Shown: piece by piece, positions 5,066-35,401 of the stretch
Layout of the letters: every line of letters starts with the position of its first letter
How positions within the stretch are numbered: position 1 is the stretch's first letter
Translations under genes and position numbers: made by a program
Source: a virus
DNA length: 37,008 nt
IMG/VR virus record: IMGVR_UViG_3300035162_002834
Location: 1-37,008 of that record
Direction: 5' to 3' (one strand)
Notes under the pieces: model-generated
Database searches by the model: none
What the model saw: the letters and a program-made list of their open reading frames with translations, nothing else
Told to the model about the DNA's origin: nothing

Positions 5066-5350
5066 TCAGACTACTTGTATATTTTTATCTATTATTGCAG
5101 CTATATCCTCCTCACGTAAACTAAATACAGTATTACCATCATATTTGAATTCGGTACCTGCCAGATCTTGAAAGATAACCTTTATACCGATCTTAAAGTC
5201 TTTATCCTCTACGCCACTGCCTACCCCGGTAATTAAACCTGAATACGGCGGGGCATGCATACCTTCCTTTTTTAAAAGAATTATACTTCCAGATTTATCT
5301 AATTGTGAATCTTTTTTTAAAAAAATCCTATCTCCTAATGGTTTTAACAT
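5066..5350 (-). CDS. GroES/Cpn10 co-chaperonin, gp31-like role
   Basis: This is a 94-residue Cpn10-family protein, the usual GroES length. N-terminal MLKPLGDRIFLKK matches the GroES start (KPLGDRV). A mobile loop at about 16-31 contains SGSIILL, equivalent to the GroES hydrophobic tripeptide that docks on GroEL. GLITGVGSG at 38-46 and VIFQDLAGTEFKYDG at 58-72 match the conserved beta-barrel strands, and REEDIAAII near 80-88 is the usual C-terminal signature. T4 uses gp31, a structural GroES analogue, with host GroEL to fold its capsid protein. This gene probably does the same, although it is visibly closer to bacterial GroES than I remember gp31 being, consistent with acquisition from a cell. 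It has its own upstream space of 87 nt. Confidence 0.92.
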   Translation of the reverse strand: MLKPLGDRIFLKKDSQLDKSGSIILLKKEGMHAPPYSGLITGVGSGVEDKDFKIGIKVIFQDLAGTEFKYDGNTVFSLREEDIAAIIDKNIQVV

Positions 5351-6471: not shown

Positions 6472-6486
6472 ATTTGTTTATATATT
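6472..6486 (-). promoter_or_regulatory. Candidate late promoter for CTS protein
   Basis: The minus strand reads AATATATAAACAAAT, identical over 15 bases to the motif before the amidoligase-like gene (32955-32969). It lies 13-27 nt before the ATG at 6459 and overlaps the TAA of the upstream gene. The sequence that follows, AAAGAACTCACA, contains GAACT, which also occurs in the other copy's leader (CAGGAACTAC). Confidence 0.5.
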
Positions 6487-7039
6487 AGGCTACATTAACT
6501 ACAACATCTAAGATGTTATAAGTGAATTCTATATCAAAAGTTTGGAATTCAATAGTATTACTTGAGAAATTTAAATCTAATGCACCTATGCTTTTTATAA
6601 ACATATCTTTTAATTGAATAGTTACAAACACAGTTCCTTCTGCATCTAGCATCTGTACACCAACACCCTCAGGTAAGTATGGCTGTTTACCACTTAATTT
6701 ATAATAGTAATCAAACATTTCAATAGCCATCCAATAATTAACATAGCCATCAAAAGCTTGCATAGTAACAGTTAATGATTTATCAAATAATTGCTGTTTA
6801 GGTATACTTGATCTAAATGCTCGTGTATTTCCAGGATAGTCAGTTTGAGTAACAGGATCAAATGATGGGCCTGGTAAATTAATAGACTGTATTCCATAAT
6901 TCCAATAATCGATAGGTTCTTTAATTAAGCCACCTGGTATTCTATTAAGAAATGGTTTATATTTCTCAACAATAGGTTTAGGTATAAAATTCCTTGGAAA
7001 GTCAAATTTAAACTGGTTATTTCTAGCACTTAATATCAT
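6485..7039 (-). CDS. Tail-tube-fold protein (gp19-like), tentative
   Basis: This is a 184-residue protein. The layout resembles T4-type tube proteins (gp19, 163 aa): an N-terminal region, a loop-rich middle (SINLPGPSFDPVTQTDYPGN, 53-72), a strand LTVTMQAFDG near 89-98, an aromatic helix (NYWMAIEMFDYYYKL), and a C-terminal strand pair (SNTIEFQTFDIEFTYNI) that recalls the NNEIQTFEVTLALDYW end of gp19. This is fold-level pattern matching by eye, so the family call is moderate. It could be the tail tube, a tube terminator or a gp48/gp54-type junction protein. It lies at the end of the baseplate/fibre block rather than next to a sheath gene, and no sheath is visible in the window. Confidence 0.5.
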   Translation of the reverse strand: MILSARNNQFKFDFPRNFIPKPIVEKYKPFLNRIPGGLIKEPIDYWNYGIQSINLPGPSFDPVTQTDYPGNTRAFRSSIPKQQLFDKSLTVTMQAFDGYVNYWMAIEMFDYYYKLSGKQPYLPEGVGVQMLDAEGTVFVTIQLKDMFIKSIGALDLNFSSNTIEFQTFDIEFTYNILDVVVNVA

Positions 7040-28488: not shown

Positions 28489-30345
28489 TTAATTTCCTTT
28501 TAATGTTTTAAGTGTTGGGGAATCTTGTAATCTACCAGTATTTAATCCTGCAGAATTCGCACCTGTTGCAATAGTAGTACCTCTACTTCTTTGCGTTTTA
28601 TTATATTTTTCTTGTTGTATTTTATTATAAAGATTATCTGCGATTGCTTCTTTATAGAATACATTAAGTGAACTAATTTTGTTAGCTTCTGGTATTGGTT
28701 CATAGTAAGTACCATTCCTATCTTTCCAACCACCCCTAATAATTGCTAAATCATTATTTTCAATTATAACATCACCAAAGCTGTCCAAGCCTAATTGAGG
28801 ATCTTCGTCTTTCTTTAATACAATCTTTTTATTTTCTATTAATACTCGCTGATCTGTTATTGGATCAGTTCCATAAACAGGAATAAAATAAAAGCCATTT
28901 TTAATAGCATCTTCATTGAGTTCTGAAATAAAGAATACGTTAACAGAATCAATACCATCAACATTTTCTACAATAGAAATTATATCCGATCTTGGAATCC
29001 TATCTCTCCTATTTACATTTAAGAAATATTCATCTAGGTTTTTTCTTATTTCAATTCTAATCTCATCCTTATCATAATTATCAAACCATCTTATTACAAC
29101 ATTCAAAGCATACTTACGAATAATTGGATCTATTATTCGAGTCTCTGCAGTAACAACTTGTCTACCGCTTGCATTTAAAATTTCATAAGTCATTGCCTTT
29201 TCTTCTGCTGTCATAGAAAATTCTACTTCAGGTATACTGAAATAATCAATATCACTTGTAAGTTTCTTTTTTATGTCAGGAATCAAAAACAAGTAAATAA
29301 TATTATCATCATCTAAGTATTCGTCATTCTTTGTATTATAAGCATCTATAAAAGACCAAAAGTCATACTTACTCAAATAGTAAATATAATTGTTAGGGTT
29401 TGCTAATACGAATGAATTACTTTGGTACGGTGCAATCAATCGTGTGAATGCAGGATCTTCTGAATCTGAACCAAACATTGGATTTCTTGTAATGTTCATT
29501 GAAAGTATTTCATTTAAATCAACCTGTTCCCCTGATGAATCTGTTCCAGGTGTGGCGAACTTTATATCTAATTGTTTTCCACCAACATTACCAGCATTGC
29601 CTCGAGTTATTACATACGTGACTCTAATACGTGAACCTAGGGCAGGCGGTAAGCCGAACTGATTATTGCCAAAGAACACACTTAATCCACCGTTTACACT
29701 AGTTTTAACCATTACAGCTTTAGTGCCGTTATTCATGTCATATAATGACTCTACCTTTTTCCATAATTCTCCATCAACAAAAACATCTACTAAATATTGG
29801 TCAGTAGGATCCTTTGTTGTTAAGTTATAACTTTGTAATGCAAGCCCTGTTCCTGTAAAGCTTTGATCTGCTTTCTCACCTTGGATCACTTCAACATTAA
29901 CAAAAGTTTTTGTAGTTTTATCTAATCTAATAAAGTCGCTATTGAAACTTAAAAAGTAAGTTAAACTATTCTGACCTAATTCAAAACTTGCACCATTCAT
30001 GATTTGTACATAATCCCCATTAAGGAGAGTAGACGCACTTGTATTTAAGCGTAATCCAATTATACCTCTTGCAGATATACCTCGTGTAGGGTCATGACCA
30101 GTTAATCTAGACAAGCCATATATAGACTCGAGGTTTCTGGCTCTAGAAATATTTAATTCAGTTACAGCTGCTTCAATATAAAAGAATATCATTTCCCCTA
30201 AATTTGCAACAACAGTCAATACTTGACCAAACGGGGATGCTGGTGTAAATACCTCAATCGCTTGATCATAGGTTCTCTGAAGATATTCAAACGAATCTTC
30301 AAATAACTCAGTTGCTTTTATTCTTGTTTTACTAAAAAATGACAT
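28489..30345 (-). CDS. 6: Baseplate wedge protein gp6 (J-like family)
   Basis: The 618 residues compare with about 660 in T4 gp6. The N-terminus has the gp6/J-type pattern: a long helix around 20-80 (YLQRTYDQAIEVFTPASPFG, then MIFFYIEAAVTELNISRA), NLESIYGLSRLTGHDPTRG at about 72-90, then a beta domain starting ARGIIGLRL. A helical, charged C-terminal half follows (DEIRIEIRKNLDEYFLN at about 425-441). It lies directly downstream of gp25, the order gp25-gp6 seen in many contractile phages and injection systems. In the T4 baseplate, gp6 forms the ring around the hub that carries the sheath. A disordered Gln/Ser/Gly-rich tail ends the protein. Confidence 0.85.
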   Translation of the reverse strand: MSFFSKTRIKATELFEDSFEYLQRTYDQAIEVFTPASPFGQVLTVVANLGEMIFFYIEAAVTELNISRARNLESIYGLSRLTGHDPTRGISARGIIGLRLNTSASTLLNGDYVQIMNGASFELGQNSLTYFLSFNSDFIRLDKTTKTFVNVEVIQGEKADQSFTGTGLALQSYNLTTKDPTDQYLVDVFVDGELWKKVESLYDMNNGTKAVMVKTSVNGGLSVFFGNNQFGLPPALGSRIRVTYVITRGNAGNVGGKQLDIKFATPGTDSSGEQVDLNEILSMNITRNPMFGSDSEDPAFTRLIAPYQSNSFVLANPNNYIYYLSKYDFWSFIDAYNTKNDEYLDDDNIIYLFLIPDIKKKLTSDIDYFSIPEVEFSMTAEEKAMTYEILNASGRQVVTAETRIIDPIIRKYALNVVIRWFDNYDKDEIRIEIRKNLDEYFLNVNRRDRIPRSDIISIVENVDGIDSVNVFFISELNEDAIKNGFYFIPVYGTDPITDQRVLIENKKIVLKKDEDPQLGLDSFGDVIIENNDLAIIRGGWKDRNGTYYEPIPEANKISSLNVFYKEAIADNLYNKIQQEKYNKTQRSRGTTIATGANSAGLNTGRLQDSPTLKTLKGN

Positions 30346-30781: not shown

Positions 30782-31645
30782 TTATCCAGTAAAAAAGTAA
30801 TCAACGCCTTCGTCATTCTTAATTTCTTCAACTACTCTATCTACATCTTCTCTACCTTCACTTGAAATCATATCATAATTAATAGTAATATTACCTGGAA
30901 GATTAAACGAAAAGGTTCCTAGAATTCTAGCTAATTGAATTTTAGCTTGCCCTATAACGTATCTAACAAAAGCCTCATCTTGGAATAGCGCACAGTCAGG
31001 AATAGTTGAAAAGATTTCAAATATAACAGCTCGCCTAGGTAATTCACCTTGGAATCTAAATTTCTTAGTTAGTCTATTATAAGTATATGATATCTGAGGT
31101 AATAAAACCTGTCTTGCATTATCCATGAATAGTGAGTTAACTACATAGTACATTAAATTTTCACTACCTATACCTGCTCCATAAACATCATTATAGATAA
31201 ACTTATCAATTGAAAAATCTACATCACCTGCATTAAAGCTCATGCTACCAAAACCACCATCCTCACCTGACCAACCACCAATTTCAAATACAGCATTTAC
31301 TGAATACACTCTAGATGGCATTTGTACTATTCCTCTAGGGTTATTAATATTTTTCTTATTTGTTATAGTTTCGTTAGGTTGGCCTGTACCAAATGGAACA
31401 CCCTGGTTAAAAGCTTGTTTAGATAATGCCCCAGCTGGTAAAGCAATATACATCTGCTCTACGCTGTCTTCGTATATTTTGTTAAAGTAACCTTTTGCTC
31501 TGTTAATAATATTAGCTAATTCTTTTTTAGGAACAGTGAAAGGAATCTGACATGCAATAGTTAGCTCATCATTAATTTCTTTAATCAATGCGTCTAAGCA
31601 CGCTGCTTCTTCTGGATCATTACAATAAGAATTTGGATTTGCCAT
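30782..31645 (-). CDS. Unidentified virion structural protein, 287 aa
   Basis: This is a 287-residue protein I cannot assign. The N-terminal half is helical (CLDALIKEINDELTIACQIP, then a VPKKELANIINRAKGYFNKIY segment). The middle (GGWSGEDGGFGSMSFNAGDV and an IDKFIYNDVYGAGIG loop) is Gly-rich with loops, and the C-terminus is helix-beta with a basic ARILGTFSFN segment and GREDVDRVVEEIKNDEG at the end. Candidate roles are a connector or neck protein, or an extra wedge component. Its position between the amidoligase and gp25 supports a tail or baseplate role. The leader AAAAAATATAAATTAAC resembles the late-promoter motif. Confidence 0.6.
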   Translation of the reverse strand: MANPNSYCNDPEEAACLDALIKEINDELTIACQIPFTVPKKELANIINRAKGYFNKIYEDSVEQMYIALPAGALSKQAFNQGVPFGTGQPNETITNKKNINNPRGIVQMPSRVYSVNAVFEIGGWSGEDGGFGSMSFNAGDVDFSIDKFIYNDVYGAGIGSENLMYYVVNSLFMDNARQVLLPQISYTYNRLTKKFRFQGELPRRAVIFEIFSTIPDCALFQDEAFVRYVIGQAKIQLARILGTFSFNLPGNITINYDMISSEGREDVDRVVEEIKNDEGVDYFFTG

Positions 31646-31651
31646 GTTAAT

Positions 31652-32944
31652 TTATATTTTTTCTATTTCTATAATTTCAGTATTTTCAAATTTGGCTAAA
31701 TCTGTAGCTCTACCTTTTCTAAATATACCTCCATCCATTTCGCCACTAAAAACACCTCGTACACCAAAAACGTAAGAATCTTTAACTGCTACATTTTTAC
31801 TTACATAAGAATCTTCTATCTTGGAATCAATAACATCACTACCTCCAAATAAGTTACTTTCTAAAATGGACGAATTAATTAATTCTGAACTAAATATATC
31901 ACAGCCTATAATATTACCTTGAATTTTAGAATCAACAATATCAATTCCTTTTATTTCAAAACATTTCATTAACTCGGCGCCCTTAAGTTGCATGCGGCCA
32001 GTATCGGAATCATAATTAATTAAACCTTCAGTCAAACCCGCCTTAGTTAATAATTCAAATACATGTTCTCTCATTTTAGGATAATACGTCTCCACTATTT
32101 GATCGTAAGTTTTTAAATCAACCATTAATTTAATTTTAGGAAATTGTCTTTTAAATGCCTTGTATGTTTTATAAGATTTTACAACGCTATTGTGTGTTTC
32201 TAATATAATATCTAAGTTTTTAAGATCCTTTGCATTATAAACAGGATCAACTAAACTTTCATACAAAGACAAAACAAAATGTTCTGTCATATTCATTATA
32301 GTATTATACTTCTTCTCATAATCTTTACCACCTAAATATCTAAACTCAATATAGTTCTGTGGTAATTTAGAAAAGTTTACACCATAATATTTTTCAGACA
32401 CAAACATGTAGTTCCTCCATAAAATTTTACCAGGTGATGGCTGTGTCATACCACTCAATGGTACAATAAATTTTATAGATTTAGCATAAACCGAATCTTT
32501 TCTATCAGGAAATGCTTCATACACAGCATCTTCGTTAAAGTTAAGAACAAACTTACCAATATCTAAAGATGATACGTTAGCAGCAGTACCTAATTTTTTG
32601 CCATCAAATGCTACATTAACATGAATAGAACACCGATCGTTTGTAGATCCATTTTCTCTAATCCACTTTAATGTTTTTGCAATAACAAGTTTTGATTCAA
32701 CAAAAGGTAGTGGGCCTGTTACTAATTCAATCATACCAGATCCACCAGAATTATCAGGTTCTAATTTAAAGATCTCATCACTTGGTTTAAATTCACTATG
32801 AGCCTTTTCTTCAACTCTTATTTGTTTATTTAAAGCTTGAGATAAACTTCTTTTAACTTCGTCTAATCCTTCATTGGCAAAGAATTCAAATTCTAATCCA
32901 ATCTTAGATCCATATATTGCATTTAGCTGTTCGTTAGTATACAT
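31652..32944 (-). CDS. Amidoligase-like protein with C-terminal beta-helix
   Basis: This is a 430-residue protein. Its N-terminal 230 residues match the Amidoligase_2 (GCS/ATP-grasp-like COOH-NH2 ligase) pattern: GLEFEF at 16-21, MIELVTGPLP at 71-80, CSIHVN at 105-110 (family usually has HVHV) and YIEFRYLGG at 199-206. The middle (230-320) is helical. Residues about 333-405 form a repetitive five/six-residue beta-helix-like array (IDIVDSKIQGNIIGCDIFSS, then an ELINSSILESNLF stretch). Amidoligases join amines to carboxylates, for example gamma-glutamyl or peptidoglycan-type bonds. The substrate here is unknown. The HVH-to-HVN change may alter metal binding. It sits between the S1 protein and structural genes and has its own promoter-like motif. 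The family call is from motif memory. Confidence 0.55.
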   Translation of the reverse strand: MYTNEQLNAIYGSKIGLEFEFFANEGLDEVKRSLSQALNKQIRVEEKAHSEFKPSDEIFKLEPDNSGGSGMIELVTGPLPFVESKLVIAKTLKWIRENGSTNDRCSIHVNVAFDGKKLGTAANVSSLDIGKFVLNFNEDAVYEAFPDRKDSVYAKSIKFIVPLSGMTQPSPGKILWRNYMFVSEKYYGVNFSKLPQNYIEFRYLGGKDYEKKYNTIMNMTEHFVLSLYESLVDPVYNAKDLKNLDIILETHNSVVKSYKTYKAFKRQFPKIKLMVDLKTYDQIVETYYPKMREHVFELLTKAGLTEGLINYDSDTGRMQLKGAELMKCFEIKGIDIVDSKIQGNIIGCDIFSSELINSSILESNLFGGSDVIDSKIEDSYVSKNVAVKDSYVFGVRGVFSGEMDGGIFRKGRATDLAKFENTEIIEIEKI

Positions 32945-32986: not shown

Positions 32987-34126
32987 TTATGCTAGGTTCA
33001 TTGTAATCTTCCTATCACTAATATTAACACTACCGATTCTAACGTTAATAACATCTCCTCTTGTAAGATTAGCTGCCTTTAGTTTAGATTTATGGATTAA
33101 ACCACTTATTCCTTTTTCTAATTCAACGAATGCACCGTATGATGTTATCTTAGTAACAGTACCTTCAGTAACCATCATAGGTTTATATTTTTCATCAGCA
33201 CCATCCCACAAATCGATCTTAGGACCTAGCTGACTTAATATAATCTTCTTATCTGAAATAATTTCTTTAGCCCAAAACTGTAATTCATCCCCAGGTTTAA
33301 TTGATCTATTGTCTAATGCTAATTTAAACTCTTCGCTTAATTCAGCTCTTGGTATTAAACCAGTTAAGCATTCATCAAATTCAGCAAATACACCAAACTT
33401 AGTTGCCCCTGTTACAAAACCAGTTCTTTGCTCTTTGATAGTTTCATGTAAATTATCAATAGTAGTAGGTATCATTGTTCTTAAATATTCTCTATGGGAT
33501 ACAACAACAGTATCCTTATCTTTTGAGAACGTAATTGGCATTACAATAATTTCTTTACCTACTAATGAATTAAAGTCGTGGAGTTTATTTAAACCGCCTA
33601 GAGATCCTGGCATAAAACAAGTAATACCAGCAACATCTACCCAATACCCGCCATGGATCAGTTCTTTAACAATAGCAGTAAACCCAACTGATCTATCACC
33701 AATAGCATCTTTGATCTCTTTTAATTTCACTTCCATTATCGCATCTCCTATTGACGCAATTACATCTCCATTTTTAGAGGTTTTAATTTTAACATCTATT
33801 TCAATACCAACCTCTAACTGTTCCACGATATAATCAGGTTCTTTTGCTAAAATACAATATGCAGTATATTTAGATTGTATATCAATAAGTGCTCGCGTTC
33901 TATCTGGTGATATAAATGAAACTTCACCTCGTGTAGTATAAGCTGTCTTAGCTTCTATTAAATTAGTTTTCTGTAGAGTAGGCTCAGGGACATTATACAT
34001 TGATAAAACATCAGGGACATAAGATTCTGTGCTTAGCACTCTTGTACCCTGTGGTACTTGTACTTTAATTACTTTTGTATCAAATGGATCATCACTCAAT
34101 TGAATTGTGATTTCTTGTTCAGTCAT
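32987..34126 (-). CDS. Protein with four S1 RNA-binding domains (bS1-like)
   Basis: This is a 379-residue protein made mostly of S1 (OB-fold) repeats: about 65-130, 146-212 (VGFTAIVKELIHGGYWVDV), 233-300 (RTGFVTGATKFGVFAEF, with GLIPRAELS) and 319-379 (EGTVTKITSYGAFVELEKGI, with SGLIHKSKL). The last two are textbook S1 domains. This resembles bacterial ribosomal protein bS1 (six domains in E. coli), which brings mRNA to the 30S subunit, but is shorter. It could act on the ribosome, on phage mRNA, or with RNA polymerase or nucleases. It sits unexpectedly among baseplate genes. Because the leaders here are A-rich and Shine-Dalgarno-poor, a role in favouring phage mRNAs is a reasonable hypothesis, not shown. 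There is a 120-bp gap with a promoter-like motif upstream. Confidence 0.85.
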   Translation of the reverse strand: MTEQEITIQLSDDPFDTKVIKVQVPQGTRVLSTESYVPDVLSMYNVPEPTLQKTNLIEAKTAYTTRGEVSFISPDRTRALIDIQSKYTAYCILAKEPDYIVEQLEVGIEIDVKIKTSKNGDVIASIGDAIMEVKLKEIKDAIGDRSVGFTAIVKELIHGGYWVDVAGITCFMPGSLGGLNKLHDFNSLVGKEIIVMPITFSKDKDTVVVSHREYLRTMIPTTIDNLHETIKEQRTGFVTGATKFGVFAEFDECLTGLIPRAELSEEFKLALDNRSIKPGDELQFWAKEIISDKKIILSQLGPKIDLWDGADEKYKPMMVTEGTVTKITSYGAFVELEKGISGLIHKSKLKAANLTRGDVINVRIGSVNISDRKITMNLA

Positions 34127-34149: not shown

Positions 34150-34165
34150 ATTTGTATTATATATT
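34150..34165 (-). promoter_or_regulatory. Candidate late promoter for the S1-domain gene
   Basis: The minus strand reads AATATATAATACAAAT, beginning 39 nt before the ATG at 34126 in a 120-bp gap that holds no other gene. No terminator-like hairpin was seen in the rest of the gap. Confidence 0.45.
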
Positions 34166-34246: not shown

Positions 34247-34522
34247 TTATGTGACTGCACCTGTTCCAGTACCTGCATGAACTCCTATAGTACCAGTAGT
34301 AGCAACCGCAGTAGTCACCACTCCTGATTTAATATAAGCATCAATAGCTGTAGCTGCTATTTTAGCAAATGCATCACCTCCTGCTTCTTTAATATCTTTA
34401 GCAGAAGTTTTGTTTGGTTTAGCTGACCTTATATTCTTTTTAGCTTCTACTTCCATTGCAGTTTCTCCTGCAACAAAGGCTTTCTTCATAGCTTCTTGTA
34501 GTGTTAATTTTACTAATGGCAT
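34247..34522 (-). CDS. Small protein adjacent to the spike, 91 aa
   Basis: This is a 91-residue protein 12 nt after the spike gene. The N-terminus is helical and Lys/Ala-rich (TLQEAMKKAFVAGETAMEVE). The C-terminal 20 residues are a repeating Val/Thr/Gly tail (VVTTAVATTGTIGVHAGTGT), a composition seen in small phage proteins beside spike genes. It is not a recognisable PAAR protein, since no Pro-Ala-Ala-Arg motif is visible. A structural or spike-assembly role is a guess from position. AAAATATATAAATT directly precedes the ATG. Confidence 0.6.
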   Translation of the reverse strand: MPLVKLTLQEAMKKAFVAGETAMEVEAKKNIRSAKPNKTSAKDIKEAGGDAFAKIAATAIDAYIKSGVVTTAVATTGTIGVHAGTGTGAVT

Positions 34523-34534
34523 AATTTATATATT

Positions 34535-35401
34535 TTAAAGTGTTTTAACATTCTTCTGGCTTAATTCACCAGCAGTCATTTTAGTAATTGGCGAAGATGT
34601 TGGGCCGCCTCGATCACCTATATGAGTATGACCGTTAAATAAACTCATAAATTTATTTCCTAATACAACCTTTTCACTCGCACCTTCCCCTAGTTCAATT
34701 GATGATGAATGATTTATAACAGTATTGTTACAATTGATTATTGCATCCTCACAATTAATTGTAACTTGAGCAGAATGAGTAAATGTTATATTTCCATCAT
34801 TAAGCATTACAATAGAATCACCATTTGTATTTATTATTTCAACAGAGTTATCTGGTTTAATATTAATTGTAGTAGGCCCTTCGGTTGTAGTATAGTCCAT
34901 CATCAAACCTTTTTCTTCAGTAAAGAAAACTTTGACATGCTCACCTTCTCTATCATTTGTTACTTCAGTACCGTTCTCACCACCTGTTAATCCAAATGCA
35001 GTATCATAAATAAGTACATGCGAGTTTTGGTATGATGCTTCTATCTCAGCTTTAGTTTCATCTGAAGGGTAAATGTTTTCATTGTAAACTGGTTGATAAA
35101 AATTTCCGTTGTCAAAAGTAACCCTAACAATAGATCCTAATTTTGGTATTTCAAATTTACCACTACCAGTACTGCTTCCACCATACATTAGTTGGTGCGG
35201 TCTTGCCCAAGGTAACGCAGCTGTTGGAATCTTGTATGCACTCTCAGGATCTCCTGAATCTACGCGCTCGTCCATTTTGCCATATACCCTTATCTTGCAT
35301 CGGCCTTCGAAAATATTATCAGCAGTATCTTCTACAATACCAACCCACTGAGTAGATCTTAGATCATCTGCATTAAAATTTGCTGGTTTTACTTTACTCA
35401 T
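34535..35401 (-). CDS. gp5/gpV-like tail spike without lysozyme domain
   Basis: This is a 288-residue protein that pierces the cell envelope at the baseplate centre. Residues 17-110 are the gp5-type OB domain (QWVGIVEDTAD, GRCKIRVYG, then IPTAALPWARPHQLMYGGS and SIVRVTFDNG). Residues about 170-245 are a repetitive beta-helix (NGDSIVMLNDGNITFTHSA, then CEDAIINCNNTVIN). The end holds GNKFMSLFNGHTHIGDRGG (249-266), the HxH-containing tip motif that in P2 gpV-type spikes binds an iron atom. T4 gp5 has a lysozyme domain between OB and helix; none is present here, and the length leaves no room for it. Its ATG overlaps the upstream stop. Confidence 0.85.
   Translation of the reverse strand: MSKVKPANFNADDLRSTQWVGIVEDTADNIFEGRCKIRVYGKMDERVDSGDPESAYKIPTAALPWARPHQLMYGGSSTGSGKFEIPKLGSIVRVTFDNGNFYQPVYNENIYPSDETKAEIEASYQNSHVLIYDTAFGLTGGENGTEVTNDREGEHVKVFFTEEKGLMMDYTTTEGPTTINIKPDNSVEIINTNGDSIVMLNDGNITFTHSAQVTINCEDAIINCNNTVINHSSSIELGEGASEKVVLGNKFMSLFNGHTHIGDRGGPTSSPITKMTAGELSQKNVKTL

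What the first reader, a model, noticed from the sequence alone, without database searches (positions are those of the whole stretch)
32987..34126. Phage-encoded four-domain S1 protein inside a tail gene block
Four S1 repeats, two of them textbook, make this close to a truncated bS1, the ribosomal protein that captures mRNA. The window's gene starts mostly lack a Shine-Dalgarno and follow A-rich leaders. A phage-made S1 could help its late mRNAs compete for ribosomes, or modulate RNA decay or transcription. This would be a translation-takeover element that T4 lacks. Its placement in the late tail operon, with its own promoter-like motif, suggests it is made late.
Basis: partly seen in the sequence, partly recalled or inferred. 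Interest (0 to 1): 0.75.

Follow-up and report, generated by a model that had tools for sequence, protein, structure and literature searches.

The report
Phage-made copy of ribosomal protein S1
A large group of marine viruses that probably infect Bacteroidota bacteria carries, among its tail genes, its own shortened version of the ribosomal protein that feeds messenger RNA to the ribosome, probably to keep viral mRNAs translated; the idea itself has already been published for giant phages.

Summary
ORF 32987-34126(-), 379 aa, is a real, strongly constrained gene whose four OB folds align end to end with bS1 domains 1-4. AlphaFold and Foldseek put it on ribosome-bound bS1, and K/R sits at the uS2-anchoring Lys43 position in 72/72 homologues. 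It is a core gene of a marine myophage group: 61 of 61 informative loci recovered with the neighbouring baseplate gene carry it. Over 500 IMG/VR stretches encode relatives; published 462-735 kb huge phages and Lak have them too. The phage proteins form one clade, cut from all sampled bacterial bS1 by a long, fully supported branch, so this is no recent host copy. Larger contigs of the group also carry bS21, and one carries tmRNA.

Translation help on the host 30S is the best reading, but missing Shine-Dalgarno is not evidence for it. Five Bacteroidota-type phages without any S1 have near SD-less, A-rich leaders too, while the S1-carrying Microcystis phage uses SD. The leaders look like a host trait, which confounds the published S1/no-SD correlation. 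Selective takeover of late mRNAs is unsupported: tail-block leaders do not differ from the rest. Phage S1 hijacking was proposed by Al-Shayeb et al. 2020: a new member of a known kind.

The parts
32987..34126 (-). phage bS1-like protein, 379 aa, four OB (S1) domains
33944..34126 (-). N-terminal extension (aa 1-61): beta hairpin aa 2-24 and helices aa 37-43 and 48-58; aa 36-39 onward superposes on the bS1 N-terminus
   Evidence: AlphaFold model; VIA-align (9gut_B model 36-379 on bS1 1-347)
33749..33943 (-). OB domain 1 (aa 62-126), counterpart of the uS2-anchoring domain; K86 = E. coli K43
33491..33685 (-). OB domain 2 (aa 148-212), HGGYWVD...CFMPGSL block; Y161 and F171 = E. coli F120 and F130
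33230..33430 (-). OB domain 3 (aa 233-299), Pfam S1 over cut-off
32990..33175 (-). OB domain 4 (aa 318-379), Pfam S1 over cut-off, RNA-face residues Y330, F333, H345
34156..34163 (-). TATATAAT promoter-like motif 37 nt upstream of the S1 start codon, conserved across the group
34247..34522 (-). small variable gene, 91 aa, upstream neighbour
34535..35401 (-). gp5-type baseplate hub protein, upstream neighbour
   Evidence: PHROG phrog_430 and phrog_37871; Phage_base_V sub-threshold
31652..32944 (-). downstream neighbour, 430 aa, weakly amidoligase_2-like, function unknown
   Evidence: E=4.5e-4, below cut-off; synteny
30782..31645 (-). head-tail adaptor Ad2 (gp13-like)
   Evidence: phrog_211
28489..30345 (-). 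baseplate wedge subunit (gp6-like), used as the anchor for the presence/absence test
   Evidence: phrog_219
6485..7039 (-). tail tube protein (in other huge phages the S1 gene lies next to this one)
   Evidence: phrog_45

Best explanation
A phage-encoded, shortened paralogue of ribosomal protein bS1 (domains 1-4 of six). Inferred mechanism: it is made with the tail proteins, docks on the host 30S platform through domain 1 (uS2) and domain 2, and uses domains 2-4 to hold A-rich, unstructured 5' leaders of phage mRNA over the mRNA path. It would thus supplement or replace host bS1 in initiation while a very large late mRNA pool must be translated on ribosomes that do not use Shine-Dalgarno pairing. 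Shown: homology, four folds, collinearity with bS1 D1-D4, anchoring-residue conservation, core-gene status, purifying selection. Inferred: 30S binding, timing, and benefit to phage mRNA. Preference for phage over host mRNA is not supported by the leaders. The larger contigs of the same group also carry bS21, the ribosomal protein next to bS1 on the platform, which fits ribosome remodelling.
For: Full-length rpsA-profile match in D1-D4 register; E. coli bS1 best solved relative. AlphaFold model with four OB domains; best folds are 30S-bound bS1: 9guv_B Z 14.5 over 314 residues and 9guq_B 165 residues at 3.3 A rmsd from model residue 39. K/R at the Lys43 position in 72/72, aromatics at the F120 and F130 positions in 72/72; Lys43 and the OB2 pocket are described in PMC10123108. 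D1-D3 suffice for 30S and mRNA binding in E. coli (PMC3858243), so four domains are enough. 61/61 informative loci keep the gene, dN/dS 0.06-0.20. bS21 in 7 of 11 larger contigs. Leaders carry A at -15..-11, where Flavobacterium leaders do and where bS1 domain 4 has been proposed to sit (PMC6847099). F. johnsoniae bS1 raises initiation on an SD-less mRNA about 2-fold (PMC9976891).
Against: Scores are far below the rpsA equivalog cut-offs (119 against 577 bits). D1 is poorly conserved, 0.43 against 0.65 for D2 and D3. The N-terminal helix keeps one aromatic position (Y44 in 53/72), not the Phe5/Phe9 pair, and K117 is not kept. No expression, binding or ribosome data exist. Related phages without S1 translate the same kind of leader, so the protein is not required for it. 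In Lak phages the homologue lies by a DnaB helicase and an RNA ligase, not by tail genes.
Confidence: 0.6

Rival explanations
1. An off-ribosome RNA-binding protein: an RNA chaperone or modulator of phage mRNA decay or transcription, in the way host S1 works with T4 RegB or in Q-beta replicase.
For: Canonical RNA-binding faces in D3 and D4. S1 domains occur in many RNA-decay proteins, and host bS1 has extraribosomal roles (PMC13157829). Poor conservation of D1. Lak homologue, which matches only D1-D3, sits among RNA ligase and tRNA-His guanylyltransferase genes.
Against: The whole D1-D4 order of bS1 is kept, including the two domains that bS1 uses for the ribosome, with K/R at the uS2 Lys43 position in 72/72.
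Confidence: 0.2
2. A virion protein, either a structural OB protein of the tail or a ribosome factor packaged and ejected to act at once on infection.
For: Embedded in the tail block in its own group; in 78 of 80 diverse loci a gene of the window's tail block lies within 3 kb on the same strand, in three different slots.
Against: Folds and sequences match ribosomal bS1, not tail OB proteins. RNA-face residues are kept. The neighbour of one slot (g13454) has no known function, so that slot is not proven structural. Lak is an exception.
Confidence: 0.1
3. A partner of the phage's own tmRNA: S1 binds tmRNA, and phage S1 would support ribosome rescue with the phage tag.
For: tmRNA over the Rfam cut-off in 5 of 8 large S1-carrying records, in none of 5 related S1-less phages; the 181-kb relative has tmRNA with tag DNAELAMAA.
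Against: Three S1-carrying giants have no tmRNA over the cut-off. Genome size differs between the two groups and could explain the difference. S1's part in trans-translation is disputed even for hosts (own knowledge).
Confidence: 0.07

Closest known systems
Possible rpS1 proteins of huge phages (Al-Shayeb et al. 2020, PMC7162821)
   Same: Records LR756500-LR756504 and LR745206, which by my recollection are that study's genomes, encode homologues of this protein (30-45% identity), and the proposal of ribosome hijacking and a link to missing SD is theirs.
   Different: Here it is a core gene of a marine group whose longest contig is 181 kb, with fixed synteny; it forms one clade with the huge-phage copies; and the SD link is shown to be confounded by host phylum.
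Bacterial bS1 (rpsA)
   Same: Collinear D1-D4, same folds, Lys43 and the two OB2 aromatics kept.
   Different: Two C-terminal domains missing, extra N-terminal hairpin, 26-29% identity, separated from all sampled bS1 by a 100/100 branch of length 1.9.
bS1 of Microcystis jumbo phage PhiMa05/MaAM05 (PMC13157829)
   Same: Phage-encoded bS1 of about 360 aa.
   Different: Near rplU/rpmA rather than tail genes, published as acquired from a Vampirovibrio-like host, in the bacterial part of a rough tree here; that phage does use SD.
Phage bS21 of Bacteroidetes phages (Chen et al. 2022, PMC9723584)
   Same: Bacteroidota phages, ribosomal protein near structural genes, late expression shown there for bS21.
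   Different: A different ribosomal protein; S1 is not mentioned in that paper. Contigs related to our window have both.
S1 motif protein of Virus NIOZ-UU157 and '30S ribosomal protein S1' of uncultured phages in UniProt
   Same: A0A7S9STL2 is 81% identical over 380 aa, so close relatives are already deposited.
   Different: Annotated only; no analysis of S1 found in the papers that name the virus.

Membership tests
bS1 (rpsA) homologue, domains 1-4 | tandem S1 OB domains collinear with bS1 D1-D4 | tested here: met
bS1 (rpsA) orthologue | score above NCBIfam equivalog cut-off | tested here: not met
   119 bits against 577 for TIGR00717, 118 against 368 for NF005208; hence filed as bS1-like phage paralogue, not as rpsA
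bS1 (rpsA) orthologue | places inside the bacterial bS1 tree | tested here: not met
   54 phage rows and 14 bacterial rows split by a 100/100 branch; bacterial sampling narrow
bS1 (rpsA) | basic residue inserting into the uS2 pocket (E. coli Lys43) | tested here: met
   K 52, R 20 of 72 at position 86
bS1 (rpsA) | N-terminal helix with Phe5/Phe9 stacking on uS2 | tested here: inconclusive
   helix predicted and superposed from residue 36-39; one aromatic, Y44, in 53/72
bS1 (rpsA) | OB2 pocket K117/F120/F130 | tested here: inconclusive
   both aromatics kept in 72/72, the lysine is not (H or P mostly)
bS1 (rpsA) | association with the 30S subunit | not testable with these tools
   needs sedimentation or cryo-EM
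phage rpS1 of huge phages (Al-Shayeb 2020) | multi-S1-domain protein of phage origin in the same protein family | tested here: met
   homologues in LR756500, LR745206, LR756501, LR756502, LR756504, same clade
phage rpS1 of huge phages (Al-Shayeb 2020) | phages carrying it rarely have Shine-Dalgarno sequences | tested here: inconclusive
   true for this group, but nearly as true for S1-less Bacteroidota-type phages, and false for the S1-carrying Microcystis phage
phage tail OB-fold protein | fold or sequence kin to known tail OB proteins | tested here: inconclusive
   none listed; PDB and viral libraries return bS1-like proteins first
phage tail OB-fold protein | present in purified virions | not testable with these tools
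   no virion proteome for this group

The most novel reading that the evidence does not exclude
The phage rebuilds the platform of the host ribosome: its own bS1 and its own bS21, which touch each other on the 30S, replace the host's late in infection (with a phage tmRNA for rescue in some members), giving a phage-specific initiation complex for SD-less mRNAs.
Probability: 0.2. Interest if true: 0.8.

Novelty: new member of a known kind. Interest (0 to 1): 0.5.

Why it matters
How Bacteroidota ribosomes find start sites without Shine-Dalgarno pairing is open, and bS1 binding to the A-rich leader is the standing guess (PMC6847099). A phage that has kept, under strong selection, a minimal D1-D4 version of bS1 is a natural tool to test that guess. 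The comparison here also removes one published argument: absence of SD does not track phage S1 once the host type is considered. If phage S1 does replace host bS1, this would be ribosome remodelling in a phage group common in marine metagenomes.

Tried and rejected
Recent capture of a host rpsA: rejected for the bacteria sampled, tree; a first tree was spoiled by a misread Anaerolineae row (L300) and long branches, which were left out. SD-less leaders as evidence of S1 function: rejected. A stronger A-rich leader on late genes: not found (only 19 genes). Single-sequence AlphaFold failed, pLDDT 31. A mixed phage/bacterial alignment gave no searchable pattern. The genome scan was run with a Bacteroidota-biased pattern, so its Flavobacteriaceae hits are not host evidence; the host inference rests instead on relatives of the baseplate gene with known hosts, the leaders and the bS21 tyrosine. 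No Foldseek row was a tail OB protein. TIGR/NCBIfam naming as rpsA rejected because cut-offs are not met. Plasmid hits to bS1 were chromosomal-type rpsA, short S1 proteins or Tex.

Full report
What is there. The window is an IMG/VR virus fragment. Its reverse strand encodes a T4-type tail and replication block: UvsW-like helicase, UvsY-like mediator, DNA primase, single-strand-binding protein, GroES, RuvC-like resolvase, tail tube, gp6-like baseplate wedge, Ad2/gp13-like adaptor and gp5-like hub. ORF 32987-34126 is 379 aa. Pfam finds two S1 domains over cut-off, domains 3 and 4. Whole-length rpsA profiles align residues 59-378 in D1-D4 register with E-values of 1e-34 to 1e-38, though far below the equivalog cut-offs. 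E. coli bS1 is the best solved relative (E=5e-25). A single-sequence AlphaFold run failed; with 72 homologues the model reached pLDDT 83.5 and shows four OB domains, an N-terminal hairpin and helices. The best structural matches are bS1 bound to the 30S subunit; the alignment begins at model residue 36-39 opposite residues 1-3 of bS1. AlphaFold was trained on such structures, so this supports the fold and says nothing direct about binding.

Is it constrained? Seventy-one marine loci carry it at 57-85% identity, with unbroken synteny: hub, small variable gene, S1, g31652, Ad2, gp6. Asked the other way round, with gp6 as the bait, S1 is present in 61 of 61 loci with enough upstream DNA; 13 were too short. 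dN/dS is about 0.06-0.20 (dS near saturation in most pairs). The upstream motif TAATATATAAT is conserved while its surroundings diverge. In the 181-kb relative, TATATAA occurs upstream of genes with a sharp peak at 20-29 nt: 22 sites in that bin against 6 or fewer in every other bin. A cruder test, TATATA counts at -45 to -20, was not above shuffles (19 against a mean of 11 and a maximum of 23).

How wide is the family? Huge-phage records of 462-735 kb and Lak phages have it. In 78 of 80 diverse loci a gene of the window's tail block lies within 3 kb on the same strand. There are three slots: next to the hub, after g13454, and after the tail tube; the tree needs only two changes of slot. Two cautions: g13454 has no known function, so slot two is structural only by its place in our window; and the Lak copy, which matches only D1-D3, lies by a DnaB helicase, an RNA ligase and a tRNA-His guanylyltransferase instead. 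The phage proteins and 14 bacterial bS1 (nine Bacteroidota, five others) are split by a 100/100 branch of length 1.9, so the gene was not taken recently from any lineage sampled.

Residues. At the position of E. coli Lys43, which enters a pocket of uS2 (PMC10123108), all 72 homologues have K or R. Positions of Phe120 and Phe130 are aromatic in 72/72; Lys117 is not kept. The helix before domain 1 keeps a tyrosine in 53/72 but not the Phe5/Phe9 pair. D2 and D3 are the most conserved domains (0.65 and 0.65), D1 the least (0.43). In E. coli, D1-D3 alone hold the 30S, bind mRNA and melt it (PMC3858243), so a four-domain form can in principle do the job.

Host and leaders. The baseplate gene's relatives with known hosts are phages of Tenacibaculum, Chryseobacterium, Flavobacterium and Prevotella, plus phage PAU, listed under Sphingomonas; weaker partial hits include a Variovorax and a Bacteroides phage. 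The bS21 of our group carries a tyrosine (AIYQQK, AVYRQK) where Bacteroidota bS21 has Tyr54; that position was read by eye. Leaders lack SD and are A-rich, with a block at -15 to -11 and A at -3, as in F. johnsoniae (PMC6847099). I therefore read the host as Bacteroidota (inferred).

The key control. Al-Shayeb et al. 2020 noted that huge phages with possible rpS1 rarely have SD and took this as support for a role in initiation (PMC7162821). Five phages of the same baseplate lineage have no S1 domain anywhere in their genomes. Stretches of them have A-rich leaders and little SD: pT24 0 of 37 and 0 of 30, PTm1 0 of 52, MA9V-1 0 of 15, MaF61 1 of 14, PAU 5 of 52 against 3% shuffled. T4 has 26 of 44, and the S1-carrying Microcystis phage has SD above shuffles (0.34 against 0.14). 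The missing SD thus follows the host type, not the S1 gene. Nor do tail-block genes have more A-rich leaders than others. Hence the window's leaders cannot be used as evidence that the phage S1 selects them.

Most likely function. A shortened bS1 paralogue that works on the host 30S late in infection, adding to or replacing host bS1 for SD-less mRNAs (confidence 0.6). Published support from the host side: bS1 raises initiation about twofold on an SD-less message in F. johnsoniae (PMC9976891). Seven of eleven larger contigs of the group also encode bS21, the neighbour that bridges bS1 to 16S rRNA (PMC10123108), and phage bS21 is expressed late in Bacteroidetes phages (PMC9723584). tmRNA is present over the cut-off in 5 of 8 large S1-carrying records and in none of 5 S1-less relatives, but genome size is a confounder. 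Rivals are an off-ribosome RNA protein, a virion protein, and a tmRNA partner.

Novelty. Phage-encoded S1 and the hijack idea are published, and a protein 81% identical is in UniProt. What is added here is that it is a core, purified-by-selection, tail-block gene of a broad phage clade with its own ancient branch, and that the SD argument for it fails.

Noticed in passing
L076-L085 (181-kb contig of locus L070), tmRNA at L078:3184-3528: A phage tmRNA with tag DNAELAMAA followed at once by tRNA-Ala(TGC); Leu, Arg and Gln tRNAs elsewhere on the contig.
   Followed up: partly
L086, L087 and the 181-kb contig at about 114138-114287: Phage bS21 of 61-66 aa with a tyrosine where Bacteroidota bS21 has Tyr54.
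   Followed up: partly
window 31652-32944: Conserved 430-aa neighbour of S1, weakly amidoligase_2-like; in the giant phages it lies far from S1. Function unknown.
   Followed up: no
huge phages LR745206 about 195.4 kb, and loci records of L212, L220, L200: A second protein of about 630-700 aa with one S1 domain, separate from the bS1-like gene.
   Followed up: no
L250:2002-3270 and L062:10001-11139: S1 gene split or frameshifted in these two contigs; assembly error or real decay not decided.
   Followed up: no
Sphingomonas phage PAU (JQ362498): Listed under an alphaproteobacterial host, but baseplate kin and leaders look Bacteroidota-like, with slight SD enrichment (5 of 52 genes, p=0.007); the host record may deserve a check.
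   Followed up: no
window 5066-5350: Phage GroES-type co-chaperonin between the single-strand-binding protein and RuvC-like genes.
   Followed up: no
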